Assembly (NCBI GenBank): GCA_010405405.1
Contig: MU004234.1
Location: forward strand, 957,275-1,021,274
Source: Microthyrium microscopicum
Taxonomy: Eukaryota; Ascomycota; Dothideomycetes; Microthyriales; Microthyriaceae
Direction of reading: 5' to 3'
DNA: 64,000 nucleotides
Below, in pieces: positions 8,754-17,609 of this stretch. The first letter of the stretch is position 1. Every line of letters starts with the position of its first letter. The notes beneath the pieces were generated by a model. It was not told the origin of the DNA. It ran no database searches and saw nothing but the letters and a program-made list of their open reading frames with translations. Both the position numbers and the translations under genes were made by a program.

Positions 8754-10976
8754 ATGGATCCACGGCGTCAAGGCCGTCAAGGCTATGGAGCCGCCCAACC
8801 CAGAAACCACCCTCATGGAACTACTCAATCCAGGAATCCGGTACCGCCGCCTAGGAATCCAGCACGACCTCAAGTCGTTGCGAGGCAGACAAACCCAAAC
8901 GCATATGGCATGCGCTATGTAAAGGTACCAAAGAACATGAATCTTCAGGCCGCGTTTAGAGCATTCGCGCCATATCTTGCACCCGTATTCATCGAGCATG
9001 ACAGTATGTATTTTTTTGAGAGAATGAATTCCGATAGTAGCTAATGGATCTAGACGCCTACTTCTGGCTCCTACCCACTGAAGATCCTTTGCAGCCGCTC
9101 TTCGTCCGCCTTCCCACACCTAGAACCGTGGGTGGGTTCTTCTCCGCAAATGATGTTCGTGGCGTCTGGGATATCTTCTTTGGATTCAATCCCAACTTGG
9201 AGCCCATCTATCCCACCCAGGGAGACATGTATGAATTCGAATTCCTAGTGCACATGCCTCAGCCGGAAGAAGATGTAGCATATTGTCGACGTGTTATGCT
9301 GAATCCAGCGACTGGCCAGTACACAGTACAAGATTTCAAAGAGGATCGCGAGGGCCGAGAGATGCCGCTTCGTTTAGAGTTGAATGAGCCAGGCTACGGC
9401 AATATTGTACATTGGCGTCCAACAGTTGATGTGAATACTGGCAATGTTTCTATGAAGCCAACAGAGCTACTTCTTGAAGAGGCTGGCGAACATTATGAGT
9501 TTGGTGATCACTGGAACGTCAATCACGATCATCCAGCTTATGTCCAGCACGTTCATGAGCAGCAGCACCAGACCCAGCAGCAGCAAGCTCAACAGCAGCA
9601 ACAAGCTCAACAGCAGCAACAAGCTCAACAGCAGCAACAAGCTCAACAGCAGCAACAAGCTCAACAGCANNNNNNNNNNNNNNNNNNNNNNNNNNNNNNN
9701 NNNNNNNNNCAGCAACAAGCTCAACAGCAGCAACAAGCTCAACAGCAGCAACAAGCTCAACAGCAGCAACAAGCTCAACAGCAGCAGCAAGCTCAACAGC
9801 AGCAGCAAGCTCATCAGCAGCGAGCCCAGTACCACCATCGTGGCAACAGCGACTTAGCCTCTACAAATGAGTCACGCTCCCAACGCCCAACTAGCGTTCA
9901 CACTCAGGCCTCACGAAATGTTGCCGACCGACAATCAGCCCAGGCCCTAGGTGGTCCTTCATCTGACCAGCCGTCAGGAAGAGATTATCCCCGTCCGGCG
10001 CCTATTAGCTTATTCGACTATCTCGATAACCTAGAAAGGGAACGCAAGATCAATTTCGGCATCGAGCAGGCGGACACCGCTGGAAGCGCCAAAGATAAGC
10101 CAGTTCGATCCCGTGCGCCTGAACTTCACTCAGGCACCAAACCAAGTGCTGCCGAGCCAGAAGCTGTCAGTCCATCTGCCCATTTAAAGGCAACCGAAAA
10201 GCCAAAGAACACTCCAGGCGCCACAAACCGGCCTTCGCAATCGCAGGCACCCGCGGCACAAACGAGGAAAACCATCTGGGCGATTGACCCATTTGATGAG
10301 TACGTTATTGTCGGCCACCGCAACGAGCAAACCGCTGCTACCAACGAGCCTGGAAGCGCAGTCAACGATTCCGCTTCTATCACCGAAACTCCAGCAAAGC
10401 TTTCCAAGGGCAAAGAACGCGCTGTCGATACAAGTTCTCCAACAGAGTTGCCGCCTCGCAGTCATGAAGCTAAGCAGACTCCAGTCGCTAACATGTTCGA
10501 CTCGATCAAGCAGTCCCAAGACGCACTGCTAGTAGCCCACAAGAGTCTCATAGACGCTATAGCTATCCACCAAGCGACGTTGGAAGCGCATGACAACGAC
10601 CCACCTGCAGACGAGGAACATCCCGAGGTTACGCAGACGCTTGCCATGGTCTGGGAAGCACGTAGAAACGAGTATGAGGCTTGGCTTGAAACGGGCGAGC
10701 AGTTGACGAAGATGGGAAAGGGTGATGTTGGACATGGTCAGTCATCTGATCGGATGGAGAGGAGTCAGACCATAGAGTAAGTGATATTGGTTGTATGGAT
10801 GGTTACATGGAATGCTAATAAATTTACTTAGATTTACGGACGATGGTGGTTCCGATTGTGACTGCTCTGAATGTGAGGGTGCAGCTTCGGAGTCTGAGGA
10901 TGGTGCTGGAGATGAGATTCCGGATATGGAGAAAAATCAACCAAGAGTGGAGGACGCCGATCCAACTGACGTCTAG
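8754..10976 (+). CDS. glutamine-rich repeat protein, three exons, interrupted by an assembly gap
   Basis: Exons are 8754-9003, 9054-10776 and 10832-10976. The introns (50 and 55 bp) have GTATGT and GTAAGT donors and CTAATG/CTAATA branch sites. As assembled the product is about 705 residues, with 40 unknown bases. The Arg/Pro/Gln-rich N-terminus is followed by a conserved-looking globular part (MRYVKVPKNMNLQAAFRAFA to about residue 260) that I cannot place in a family. Next comes an imperfect QQQQAQ hexapeptide array at 9574-9820, then a long Ser/Pro/Lys-rich disordered region with KGKERA. The third exon adds a Cys/acidic tail (DCDCSECEG). Poly-Gln and disorder suggest a nuclear or RNP-type scaffold, but that is inference. 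The array length is uncertain because of the gap. Confidence 0.8.
9574..9820 (+). repeat. 18-bp tandem repeat encoding QQQQAQ
   Basis: The unit is CAGCAGCAACAAGCTCAA. Five GCTCAA-ended units precede and six follow an N stretch, with a final variant ending GCTCAT. The last units use CAG where earlier ones use CAA. The near-identity of the central units suggests recent expansion or contraction. Confidence 0.9.
9670..9709. other. assembly gap (40 N) inside the repeat array
   Basis: Forty Ns interrupt the 18-bp array. The flanks would need 16, 34 or 52 bases to stay in repeat register, so 40 does not fit the period, although it does keep the Gln reading frame (40 and 16 are equal modulo 3). The true copy number is unknown. 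Confidence 0.9.
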
Positions 10977-13375: not shown

Positions 13376-13533
13376 TCAAAGCTTCGATGCTTTGGCTGTC
13401 TTTTTCAGTACTTCCAGCGCATCTCTTCTTACTTCTTCCGTGATCTGTCGAGCAGACATCGATTGCGTCACTAATCCAACACCAGTCCCTGCGTAGGTCG
13501 TCAACCGCCCGTTTTCTCCCCATCCGCTATCTC
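13376..13533 (-). pseudogene. nitronate monooxygenase, C-terminal fragment (cut off by transposon)
   Basis: Read on the minus strand from the edge of the transposon, this stretch encodes WGENGRLTTYAGTGVGLV, the conserved C-terminal block of fungal nitronate monooxygenases (formerly 2-nitropropane dioxygenases). It runs to a stop at 13376-13378 after about 50 further residues. It is the missing end of the gene whose N-terminal 305 residues lie at 16694-17609. The two parts continue each other exactly at the 9-bp target duplication of the inserted element, so the split is recent enough for both sides to stay free of further stops. Confidence 0.88.
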
Positions 13534-13542
13534 TAGCTTTTA
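13534..13542 (+). repeat. target site duplication, left copy
   Basis: TAGCTTTTA, matching the right copy CAGCTTTTA at 16685-16693 except for T/C at the first base. A 9-bp duplication is the size typical of Mutator-like elements. Confidence 0.85.
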
Positions 13543-13620
13543 GGCAATTGTTAAGTGGCCTCAGCTAATTCTGAGGTAGCCCTAGAAGGATCTTAGGTAG
13601 CCTCAGCCGCCATTATCTAA
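13543..13620 (+). repeat. MULE terminal inverted repeat, left
   Basis: A 78-bp repeat starting GGCAATTGTTAAGTGGCC. It matches the reverse complement of 16607-16684 except at 8 positions, all of them transitions. It contains three spaced copies of a GTGGCCTTAG-like motif, possibly transposase-binding sites. Confidence 0.92.
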
Positions 13621-16606
13621 ATAATTATCTACCAATCCTATATTAATCTAACCTTAAGTAGCCTTAGTCTAACCTAATATAGTAATATCTTAAAAAATAA
13701 AAATAGATTACTACTAAGCCTTACTTCTAACTTTATATCTAACTTTATATCCTTAATTATTACTACTATTACTATAACTACTACTTCTTTATAATATAAT
13801 TACTTAACTATAAACTAACCAAAATAGACTAATTTAACGTTTCTTATATCCTTAACCTTTTCTCTACTAACGTTATTTATCCTACCTAGTAAAAAGGCCT
13901 TAACGCTATTTATGTTTATAGTAAAATCTATAAATATTATATTAAATAAAAGCGTAGTTCTCCCTCTAAATTAAATCCTAATAATGTATATATTTAGTAT
14001 ACTAAAACTAGTAAACCCTTTTACTATAGAGATACCTTCTATAATATTAAAAGCGTAAAAGATTATTATCCTTATAACTATTAAATTATATAAAGCAAGA
14101 ATAAAGCTCTTCTAAGATAAATTATTAATTATTAAGGTACCTATTATAACTATCCTATAGTATAAATAGATACTACTTATGCTACTATTTAATTATAGGC
14201 TTAAGAAGCTTTAAGAATCTACGACGAAGTTACTACTTTATCTTTAAATAAGAGGACGTTACTAAGTAAGATAATAATAACCCTTTAATGTAAATATCCT
14301 AACCTTATAATTACTATTTAGGATATCTATAATATAAGAAGCCTTAATAAGATAATTTAACTTACTAGATATACCTTAATTAATATTATAGTAGCTAAAT
14401 TATATACGCACCCTAAATTTATATATAAAATCTAAGTATGCTAAAATAAGCTTATAAGCCTATTATTAGTATCTAAATAGTCTATTAAGCTTTATTAAAC
14501 TTATCCTAATATTTTACTCTTTAATTTAATATACTAAACTAATAAATATAAGATGCTAATATTCTATATTAATATAGTAATAGCAATAAATAAATACTTT
14601 AGCGTAGCGTTTATATATATAATAAGTAAAGATAAAGTATAATATTAATAGGTGCTAAAAGCGTTTAATAAGAAGATTTAACTAGGAATTTCTCTCCTAA
14701 ATATTGTCCTTATAGACTACTACTTAGTGCTAAAGAATGCCCTTATAATGTTAATTCCTAATTCTTAATTAATATGTTAATATTACTATAAAGAAGCTAT
14801 TTATCTTTATATTAAGACATGTTAGAATTATCTTTAGTATCTTAAGGATCCTATAGGAAGGGCTATTACTACGCAGACTTAAGAATTAGCCTATAAGCTA
14901 TAGTTAAAGGTAGCTAAAATTCCCCTACTATTAGAGTTAATTTACTAATAAATTTATAGGTTCTTTACGCTTTAATAAAGCTTAAACTAAACGCTATATA
15001 AGAATATCTTAATACTATATTAAAAGTAGATAATAAAGGTCTCTACTTTATATTATATCTTAAGAAGACCTAGATGCTATAAAAATATTAACTTTATAAC
15101 GTCTATATCTCTAGAGTCTACTATTTAGGTATAAAAATAATTTCTCTACTAGAAGGATTATATAATGCTATTAAAGAATAGATTTAAAAGAATAGTAATC
15201 TTCTCTCTATCTTAAATACTCTAAAGGACGCTATTAAGGTTTAATATAAATAACTAAAAGATACTATAGGCTATGAAGCTAAATACGCGCTATATAATCT
15301 ACTACTATAGTATCTTCTTATTATATTAAGAATATTCTACTACTTTATTAGTAACTACGCTCTAGATTTAATAAAGAAGCAATATCTTAAGTATAAAAAT
15401 AAGGAATCTAGATAAGTTAAATATATAGAGTACTCTTTAACTTTTACTACTACTATAGGGTTATTATATAGTTATACTATTAAGCTAAAGCTTACTAAAG
15501 ACTCCTATTAGGTTCTTAATAAGGCTAATATTAATCCTTACTAGTTTTATAATTAATTTAAGTCTAGTAGAGAGTTAAATTATCCTTTATAATATCTTAT
15601 TAGTTAAGATCTATTGCCTAAAGTTACGTTAGGAATTTAGCCTTTAGATATTATTTATAGTAGTAAACGTCCTTAAGCATCTTAGTCTAATGCTTAGCCT
15701 AATTAACGCCTATAGGCTTTAATAAGTTAAATACTATTTTATACTAAGCTTTAGCCTATTCTATTGCTAGTGATAGTTAATATAGTAGCTATAGTAGCTA
15801 TAGCGTCTTAAGAATTTATTAATATTAAAGATTTAGATACTAAACTTATATAGACTTATACTATAGAACGCTAGCTACTACTAGAAGCTATAGAAGTAAT
15901 AGATCTTATAGTAGAATTAGGCCCTTCTTTATGACTTTAGCTAAATTTAAGCTTATAATCTTCTCTAGCTAAATACTAACGCTAAAATACTACTCTTTTT
16001 ATTTAATCTTTACCTAAATAAGTATTAAGTAAACGTACTATAGCTTTATTAAAGAAGGTACTTTAGATTAAAGTAGATTATTAGGCTATATAGATTAAAG
16101 AGCTAGAACGCTATTAGGCTAAGCAAGAGCGCTATTAAGCTAATCTTAAAGAACATCTTACTAAAGCTAAAGCTATAGCTATAAAGGCCTAAATTATTAC
16201 TTTAATAGCTATTACTATTATTAAGATAATAACGTATAAAGAAGTTACTACTACTACTACTATTTGCGTGCTAATTTAATTAACTAGAGGCTTAAATAAG
16301 AGAAGAAAGAGGCCTATTTAGTAGTATCTAGATAAATATTCTTAAAGATAGTTTAATACTAAGAATCTATATAAAGATTGTATATAAATTAGCTATAGAA
16401 TATATATATTATCTTTAATAATAGCTAGTAAGTCTAAATCTCTCTAAGGGCCTAATTTAGGTATAAAATTAGTATTTTTAAAGTTAATAATCTATATGCG
16501 CCCTTTAGGCGTTAATATAATATAATAACTTAATTTTAAGTAATATTTAACTACTACTAAGGCTACCTTAGATCTATAGTTAATTTCCTATTTAGGTTTA
16601 GATCCA

Positions 16607-16684
16607 TTAGATAACGGCGGCTAAGGCCACCTAAGATCCTTCTAAGGCCACCTTAGAATTAGCTAAGGCCACTTAACAATCGCC
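16607..16684 (-). repeat. MULE terminal inverted repeat, right
   Basis: The reverse complement starts GGCGATTGTTAAGTGGCC and runs 78 bp before diverging from the left repeat. It keeps G/C at some sites where the left copy has A/T and the reverse at others, so the two ends were mutated independently. Confidence 0.92.
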
Positions 16685-16693
16685 CAGCTTTTA
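16685..16693 (+). repeat. target site duplication, right copy
   Basis: CAGCTTTTA. This copy probably keeps the original base (C on plus, G on minus), because a minus-strand GGA codon fits the monooxygenase family better than the AGA seen at the left copy. Confidence 0.85.
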
Positions 16694-17609
16694 CTGCTTC
16701 GGCATACTTCGACTTGTTTTCTGTCCAGTCTATTCCCGCCATAGCATCATGATAACTCTGGTTGATCACACCTCTTCCACCATACTCTTTCGGCCAATCC
16801 GTCGTCCCTCGCAATTGGTCGTAGATACTACTTCTCACAGTACACTTTCCTCCATTATGCCTCTTGATGATCTCGTCCTTGTAGCCCTTTGAGAGGTTTG
16901 CCTCGTGGCTTGCAAGATATCTCGTACCCATACAGACGCCATCCGCACCGAGAGCCAAAGCAGCCGCGACTCCTCGCCCTTCGACGATACCACCAGTGGC
17001 AATCAGTATTGGATACTCCGCTGCCTTCAGCTCGCCGCTTTCTACTAGTGTTCCCAGCCCTGACGATACTTCCGGCAGCAATGAGATGATACTCGCAGAT
17101 TGATTCAGTCCATGGCCACCAGCATCACAGCCTTGCACGATGAGAACGTCTGGTTTGCATGATTTGACGACATCCATGGCGTCGTCAACACAGCCAACTT
17201 GTATCCAGATTTTCGTCGCGCCATTAGTGAGGCTCCGAGTTCGCTGTGTCCATTCTACAAGATTATCGTTGTGCCGAGGAGCAAAGAGCCAGATTGCTGC
17301 TGGTTTGTATTTCTTGATAGATGAGAGAGCAGCCTTGAGATCAGCGCCCCAGTTGAGAAATCCTACACCAACTGGAAGAGTTCCGTGATTTGCGACAAGT
17401 GGTGGTTCAATTTTGCTCAGAAGCCTGCGCGAATCCTCAAGAATTTGGTCGAGGTCGCTTTGATCACTGCCCGAGCCTATAAATCCAAGTCCTCCGGCCA
17501 ATGAAACCTCAGTTGCCAGCTCCGACAGAGCTATTTGCCTCATCGGGGCACTGACAATGAGAGGGGCTTTCGCCCAAGGATATTGAGCGATTATCCGGCG
17601 AGTTCCCAT
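16694..17609 (-). pseudogene. nitronate monooxygenase, N-terminal 305 residues (disrupted by MULE)
   Basis: An FMN-dependent TIM-barrel enzyme of the nitronate monooxygenase family, which oxidises alkyl nitronates such as propionate-3-nitronate. From the ATG at 17609 the frame shows the N-terminal barrel (LIVSAPMRQIALSELATEV, GGLGFIGSG), the FMN-site block VQGCDAGGHG, and the phosphate-binding ATGGIVEGRGVAAALALGADG. It then runs into the transposon and stops inside its inverted repeat near 16659, having lost the GRLTTYAGTGVGLV C-terminal block found at 13376-13533. No other damage is visible in this part. The truncated product would lack the helix and strand that close the barrel, so it is probably inactive. 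Confidence 0.9.

What the first reader, a model, noticed from the sequence alone, without database searches (positions are those of the whole stretch)
13376..17609. Nitronate monooxygenase split by a Mutator-like transposon
The N-terminal 305 residues (16694-17609) and the conserved GRLTTYAGTGVGLV end (13376-13533) are separated by a 3142-bp element with 78-bp inverted repeats and a 9-bp target duplication. Both halves are otherwise open and in the same frame up to the duplication, so this looks like a recent gene knock-out, not an ancient pseudogene. Loss of this enzyme would be a strain- or species-level phenotype in nitronate or propionate-3-nitronate handling.
Basis: partly seen in the sequence, partly recalled or inferred. 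Interest (0 to 1): 0.75.

Follow-up and report, generated by a model that had tools for sequence, protein, structure and literature searches.

The report
Fungal flavoenzyme gene split by transposon
In what appears to be the fungus Microthyrium microscopicum, one gene of the nitronate monooxygenase family has been broken by a jumping gene that was then mutated to death by the fungal genome's own defence; a clean but ordinary example of gene loss.

Summary
The window is fungal, very probably Microthyrium microscopicum. A PF03060 (nitronate monooxygenase family) gene on the minus strand is cut into a 5' part (17609-16685) and a 3' part (13542-13376) by a 3142-bp element (13543-16684) with 78-bp inverted ends (8 mismatches) and a 9-bp target duplication (8 of 9 identical). 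Searched apart, the halves adjoin in 221 of 239 homologues. The element is a Mutator-like (MULE) transposon: its transposase domain appears when stops are read through, and three of four sister copies have exact 9-bp duplications.

All 17 MULE-domain matches listed for the genome carry stops. The host gene has no other lesion, so the loss looks young; strain- or species-wide cannot be told here. An intact paralogue (45% identity) and four weaker relatives remain and the substrate is unknown, so the predicted phenotype is unsupported. Ordinary; interest low.

The parts
16685..17609 (-). 5' part of the NMO-family (PF03060) gene: 308 codons plus the first base of the next, up to and including the right copy of the target duplication
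   Evidence: Open reading frame; PF03060 E=1.8e-27
16659..17609 (-). Truncated reading frame as it stands: 316 aa, its last 8 residues read wholly or partly from the element's inverted end
13376..13542 (-). 3' part of the same gene with its own stop; holds 9 of the 83 columns that are at least 95% conserved in 119 homologues
13543..16684 (+). MULE DNA transposon (Hop-like in architecture), 3142 bp, RIP-degraded; remains of the transposase lie on the + strand
   Evidence: Repeats; four sister copies; PF21056 above and PF10551 below cut-off in the read-through frame, PF10551 above cut-off in sister L012; RIP indices
13543..13620 (+). Left terminal inverted repeat, 78 bp
16607..16684 (-). Right terminal inverted repeat, 78 bp; it holds 21-bp direct repeats at 16620-16676
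13534..13542 (.). Left copy of the 9-bp target-site duplication (TAGCTTTTA); differs from the right copy by T against C before A
16685..16693 (.). Right copy of the 9-bp target-site duplication (CAGCTTTTA)

Best explanation
A cut-and-paste DNA transposon of the Mutator-like (MULE) superfamily inserted near the 3' end of an intact PF03060 flavoenzyme gene of what is very probably Microthyrium microscopicum, duplicating 9 bp of target (shown). The gene now yields at most a 316-residue protein lacking about 50 residues, including a conserved W...R...YAG...GL segment, and is probably a null allele (inferred). The transposon belongs to a small family that spread within a short time. RIP, the fungal defence that turns C to T in repeated DNA before meiosis, then destroyed its transposase (pattern shown, process inferred). 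RIP hardly went beyond the element's edges, so the host gene halves were left clean apart from one candidate C-to-T change in the duplication. The loss is young on the scale of the gene family, and is buffered to an unknown degree by an intact paralogue.
For: Ends, duplication and frames. Sister copies L009, L010 and L012 with exact 9-bp duplications. MULE domain PF10551 in the read-through frame of L012 (E 1.8e-8, above cut-off); in the window copy PF21056 is above and PF10551 below cut-off. RIP: GC 0.25, TA/AT 1.64, (CA+TG)/(AC+GT) 0.20 inside, against 0.52 and 1.51 (TA/AT; CA+TG ratio) in the 5' gene part. Transitions to transversions 287:4, 331:5 and 419:9 against L009, L010 and L012. Stops in all six frames of all five copies and in 17 of the 17 MULE-domain matches listed (only the best candidates are scored, and the window copy is not among them). 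Halves contiguous in 221 of 239 homologues. Conserved-site changes no more than in the three closest relatives. No significant rate difference in nine tests against outgroups P0005, P0008 and P0012. The paralogue falls on the other side of a fully supported branch in a tree of 33 rows chosen from 240 proteins.
Against: The window copy's PF10551 score (23.9) is below the curated cut-off (27.6). A protein search with the read-through transposase of L012 found nothing at E 0.001. The duplication is 8 of 9, not perfect. Only 8 of 119 homologues deviate at as many conserved columns as the window gene (median 1). Its branch is the longest of its four-member clade, 0.44 against 0.10-0.31. Relative-rate tests with close relatives as outgroup give p=9.4e-8 (P0004, which is too close to P0002 to be a fair outgroup) and 0.042 and 0.069 (P0003), while the C7 paralogue shows no such excess against P0122 in six tests; some relaxation cannot be excluded. 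The 250-bp bin 16751-17000 next to the element leans slightly towards RIP (0.80; 1.03). The contig lengths recorded with the protein hits (2777148 and 2415436) differ slightly from C5 and C7 here (2774703 and 2413706), unexplained.
Confidence: 0.93

Rival explanations
1. The element was already RIP-dead when it jumped into the gene. Its ends had escaped RIP, and a transposase made elsewhere moved it.
For: The inverted ends are less mutated than the rest: CpA-type sites changed 1 of 20 against 202 of 260 in L009, 9 of 20 against 220 of 260 in L008, 4 of 20 against 125 of 260 in L010. Four other MULEs keep inverted arms with only 2-6 mismatches (L013, L048, L049, L050).
Against: In L012 the contrast is not significant (2 of 20 against 44 of 260, p=0.55), and the sparing is a gradient that goes on beyond the inverted repeat (L009: 1 of 5 changed at 78-100 bp, 5 of 8 at 100-140 bp), as expected if RIP simply weakens towards repeat edges. 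In L048 and L049 CA/TG dinucleotides are scarce at the ends too. No MULE-domain match without stops was listed (17 of 17 broken). The window copy's two ends differ at 8 sites, all transitions, against 1, 2 and 2 in the sisters, so mutation probably went on after insertion.
Confidence: 0.08
2. The gene was already decaying or under relaxed constraint before the insertion, so the transposon is a passenger, not the cause of the loss.
For: Long branch in the tree; unique changes 27 against 17 relative to P0002 with outgroup P0005 (p=0.13); p=0.042 and 0.069 with P0003 as outgroup and 9.4e-8 with P0004; 3 conserved-column changes against a median of 1.
Against: No stops or frameshifts in either half. 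Only 3 of 74 conserved columns changed, no more than in its intact closest relatives (3, 4, 5). Relative to P0003 there is no lean with outgroups P0008 and P0012 (26 to 27, 27 to 30).
Confidence: 0.12
3. The truncated 316-residue protein still works, so nothing is lost.
For: The part with the conserved GGHG motif is complete in the 5' part.
Against: The lost part holds 9 columns conserved in at least 95% of 119 homologues, six of them at 100% after rounding.
Confidence: 0.05
4. The element behaves as a 3.1-kb intron and the mature mRNA is whole.
For: None found beyond the matching frame on both sides.
Against: The length would be extreme for a fungal intron (recalled). Splice sites were not modelled.
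Confidence: 0.01

Closest known systems
Hop and Hop-like fungal MULEs, including VdMULE1-3 of Verticillium dahliae (PMC3441728, passages seen)
   Same: Length 3.4-3.6 kb there, 3.1 kb here; inverted ends of 53-86 bp there (table and text differ), 78 bp here; sub-terminal direct repeats (three 15- or 17-bp repeats in VdMULE1 and 2, 21-bp here); transposase with PF10551.
   Different: Duplication 8 bp in the one VdMULE that has one, 9 bp here. The terminal consensus given there is GGNAA; only the window's left end fits (GGCAA), while its right end and the ends of L009, L010 and L012 read GGCGA. Here all five copies are RIP-damaged; the abstract there reports RIP only in some Gypsy elements. No transposase tree was made here.
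RIP-inactivated transposons of Pezizomycotina (PMC12543289 and PMC4858203, passages seen)
   Same: C-to-T changes with CpA preference, confined to the repeat, with only few changes outside.
   Different: Nothing of substance. The weaker mutation of the outer about 100 bp is seen here in copies of one family in one genome.
PF03060 nitronate monooxygenase family of Dothideomycetes (Tothia 59%, Venturia nashicola 59%, Verruconis 58% identity)
   Same: Same domain and conserved columns over the 5' part and, separately, the 3' part.
   Different: Interrupted here; the substrate of these fungal members is not known from any call.

Membership tests
MULE (Mutator-like) DNA transposon | Target-site duplication of 8-11 bp (PMC6446971, passage) | tested here: met
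   9 bp, 8 of 9 identical in the window; exact 9 bp in L009, L010, L012; none seen at L011
MULE (Mutator-like) DNA transposon | Long terminal inverted repeats | tested here: met
   78 bp, 8 mismatches, all transitions
MULE (Mutator-like) DNA transposon | MULE transposase domain PF10551 | tested here: met
   Above cut-off in sister L012 (35.1 bits); below it in the window copy (23.9 against 27.6), where PF21056 passes (28.3 against 27.2); stops read through; six frames of L012 and the three + frames of the window copy were scanned
MULE (Mutator-like) DNA transposon | Open transposase reading frame (an active element) | tested here: not met
   122-144 stops in every frame of the window copy; all five copies broken. 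The catalytic triad was not located. This fails activity, not superfamily membership.
Hop sub-group of MULEs | Transposase clusters with Hop | not tested
   No tree made; the protein search with the read-through transposase of L012 found nothing
Hop sub-group of MULEs | Terminal GGNAA and sub-terminal direct repeats (PMC3441728) | tested here: inconclusive
   Left end GGCAA, right end and three sister copies GGCGA; 21-bp direct repeats at 16620-16676
RIP | Transitions, CpA preference, confined to repeats | tested here: met
   287 Ts to 4 Tv; of 631 varying C/T-type columns CpA is the commonest context with 243, but CpT follows with 207 and CpG with 136; of 167 columns changed in L008, L009 and L010 but not L012, 154 are CpA or CpA/G; flanks normal
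Nitronate monooxygenase (PF03060) | Family domain above curated cut-off | tested here: met
   97.1 bits against 28
Nitronate monooxygenase (PF03060) | Oxidation of nitronates or propionate-3-nitronate | not testable with these tools
   Of the 18 matching solved sequences, by my reading of the names, 6 are enoyl-ACP reductases (4 of the best 5), 11 nitronate or nitroalkane enzymes and 1 is PA1024

The most novel reading that the evidence does not exclude
MULE ends escape RIP as a rule, so that RIP-killed copies stay movable by any transposase that comes in by mating, and the window insertion was made by such an already dead copy.
Probability: 0.07. Interest if true: 0.45.

Novelty: new member of a known kind. 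Interest (0 to 1): 0.2.

Why it matters
It corrects the reading of one gene in this genome, where the 316-aa frame is a transposon-truncated fragment, and documents a small MULE family with 9-bp duplications in what is very probably a member of the Microthyriales. The aligned copies give a usable record of how RIP falls off within about 100 bp of a repeat's edge and hardly enters the flanking gene. Nothing here would much surprise a specialist.

Tried and rejected
Transposase relatives: the protein search with the read-through transposase of L012 gave no match at E 0.001, so the element's subgroup rests on architecture and Pfam only.

Sharp protection of the inverted ends from RIP was considered because CA/TG dinucleotides persist at the ends of L008, L013 and L050; they do not in L048 and L049. 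With the four aligned copies the sparing turned out to be gradual from the edge, and not significant in L012, so it was not made the main claim. Five DDE_1 (Tc1/pogo-type) matches were looked at as a comparison but do not settle it. LTR elements could not serve: only four integrase matches, three without stops.

Telling RIP before from RIP after insertion by shared site patterns was not decisive: CpA sites are close to saturation, so shared changes need no shared ancestry.

Genuine acceleration of the window gene: rejected as unproven. It is significant only with close relatives as outgroup (P0004 p=9.4e-8; P0003 p=0.042 in one of two tests, 0.069 in the other), not with P0005, P0008 or P0012 (nine tests, p 0.1-0.89).

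Papers: searches gave listings; passages were seen of PMC6446971, PMC3441728, PMC9552603, PMC12543289 and PMC4858203; none was read whole. Recalled, from no call: that Microthyrium microscopicum lives on dead leaves, that fungal introns are short, and the class of the named Dothideomycetes other than Microthyrium.

Full report
What the window is. The window lies at C5:957275-1021274 of a 36.9-Mb, 20-contig genome. The intact NMO paralogue of that genome, on C7, is 100% identical over its whole length to a protein named by NCBI as from Microthyrium microscopicum, a dothideomycete of the order Microthyriales. The window is therefore taken to be from that fungus. The contig lengths recorded with the protein hits (2415436 for the paralogue, 2777148 for the window's own protein) differ slightly from C7 and C5 here (2413706, 2774703); I cannot say why.

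The split gene. On the minus strand a reading frame starts at 17609 and runs through 308 host codons to the right target duplication, then a few residues into the element, ending at 16659 as a 316-aa frame. It matches PF03060 at E=1.8e-27. The sequence from 13542 down to the stop at 13376 continues the same protein in the matching frame. The two parts were compared apart with 239 homologues (all listed hits but the window's own): in 221 they adjoin with exactly the one residue expected between them; the other 18 show gaps of -4, 0, 2, 3 or 4. The lost part holds 9 of the 83 columns that are at least 95% conserved in 119 homologues.

The element. It spans 13543-16684 (3142 bp) with 78-bp arms that differ at 8 sites, all transitions. 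The flanking 9-bp copies are TAGCTTTTA and CAGCTTTTA. The difference is T against C before A, the context in which RIP acts, so it may be a RIP change just outside the repeat (inference). Four further near-complete copies exist in the genome, at 86-91% identity. Three of them (L009, L010, L012) have exact 9-bp duplications; at L011 none was seen. By eye from the flanks printed, three other MULEs (L048, L049, L050) also have exact 9-bp duplications, and L013 has one if its ends are moved out by two bases. With stops read as residues, frame +3 of L012 matches the MULE transposase domain PF10551 (E 1.8e-8, above cut-off). The same frame of the window copy reaches PF21056 above and PF10551 below cut-off. 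A protein search with the L012 frame found no relative at E 0.001. Architecture and length resemble the Hop-like VdMULEs (PMC3441728, passages); the general MULE criteria are taken from PMC6446971 (passages).

RIP. Inside the element GC is 0.25, TA/AT 1.64 and (CA+TG)/(AC+GT) 0.20; the gene parts on either side are normal (0.52 and 1.51; 0.63 and 1.12), although the 250-bp bin 16751-17000 leans a little towards RIP (0.80 and 1.03). The window copy differs from L009 by 287 transitions and 4 transversions, from L010 by 331 and 5, from L012 by 419 and 9, and from the more diverged L011 by 308 and 68. No copy has an open transposase frame, and all 17 MULE-domain matches listed for the genome contain stops (only the best candidates are scored). 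The genome has six cytosine methyltransferase-domain matches without stops, on C3, C4 and C6; whether one is the RIP enzyme RID was not tested. RIP weakens towards the element's edge. Of CpA-type sites where at least one of four copies keeps C, L009 shows 1 of 20 changed in the arms against 202 of 260 elsewhere, L008 9 of 20 against 220 of 260, L010 4 of 20 against 125 of 260, and L012, the least mutated copy, 2 of 20 against 44 of 260, which is not significant. The change is gradual over about 100 bp. This agrees with the statement in PMC4858203 that RIP follows the extent of homology with few changes outside (passage).

How old. Neither half has a stop or frameshift. At 74 positions conserved in at least 95% of 119 homologues the 5' part deviates 3 times, against 3, 4 and 5 (of 74-75) in its closest relatives P0002, P0003 and P0004; the median of all 119 is 1, and 8 of 119 deviate at least as often. 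Relative-rate tests against the distant outgroups P0005, P0008 and P0012 are not significant in nine of nine; those against P0002 and P0004 lean towards a faster window gene (24-29 to 16-23 unique changes), those against P0003 do not all (35 to 28, 26 to 27, 27 to 30). With P0003 or P0004 as outgroup p is 0.042, 0.069 and 9.4e-8. The C7 paralogue, as a control, shows no excess against P0122 in six tests. The window gene's branch is the longest in its clade of four. The few transversions between the window copy and its nearest sisters point to a recent burst. This supports a young loss, not a dated one.

What is lost. In a tree of 33 rows chosen from the 240 proteins, the gene groups with Dothideomycete proteins such as those of Tothia, Venturia and Verruconis, and the C7 paralogue lies across a fully supported branch with its own Tothia and Venturia members. 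The C7 paralogue is intact with 363 aa. Further weaker matches without stops lie on C2, C4, C9 (two pieces, counted as one locus) and C15. The 18 matching solved sequences are, by their names, 6 enoyl-ACP reductases (4 of the best 5), 11 nitronate or nitroalkane enzymes and PA1024; PA1024 is called an NADH:quinone oxidoreductase in PMC10033279 (abstract in the listing). A phenotype in nitronate metabolism is therefore a guess.

Verdict. An ordinary transposon knock-out with a clean anatomy, correctly spotted. The added facts are the probable species, the RIP death of the element and its family, and the intact paralogue.

Noticed in passing
L009:4645-5382 (-): A reading frame for mitochondrial ribosomal protein mL59 (PF18126, E 1.4e-35, model positions 2-130 of 130 at residues 50-207 of 246) runs up to a sister copy of the element without a stop of its own before it, so that insertion lies beyond the domain.
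   Followed up: partly
window:9575-9821: An 18-bp tandem repeat coding for a glutamine/alanine-rich stretch is interrupted by a 40-base run of N (9670-9709), presumably an assembly gap.
   Followed up: no
L008, L009, L010, L012; L013, L048, L049, L050: Copies keep inverted ends with few mismatches (1-8 per pair) although their interiors are RIP-damaged, L048 only mildly; in the four aligned copies of the window family the sparing is a gradient from the edge.
   Followed up: partly
G000:C2:1276068 and C2:943694: The four LTR-type integrase matches include open frames of 1443 and 1267 aa without stops (the second below the family cut-off) in a genome where multicopy elements are RIP-damaged; they may be single copies.
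   Followed up: no
genome-wide (G000): 98 reverse-transcriptase matches, 92 of them with stops by my count, many of repeated pattern, suggesting a large RIP-damaged retroelement family.
   Followed up: no
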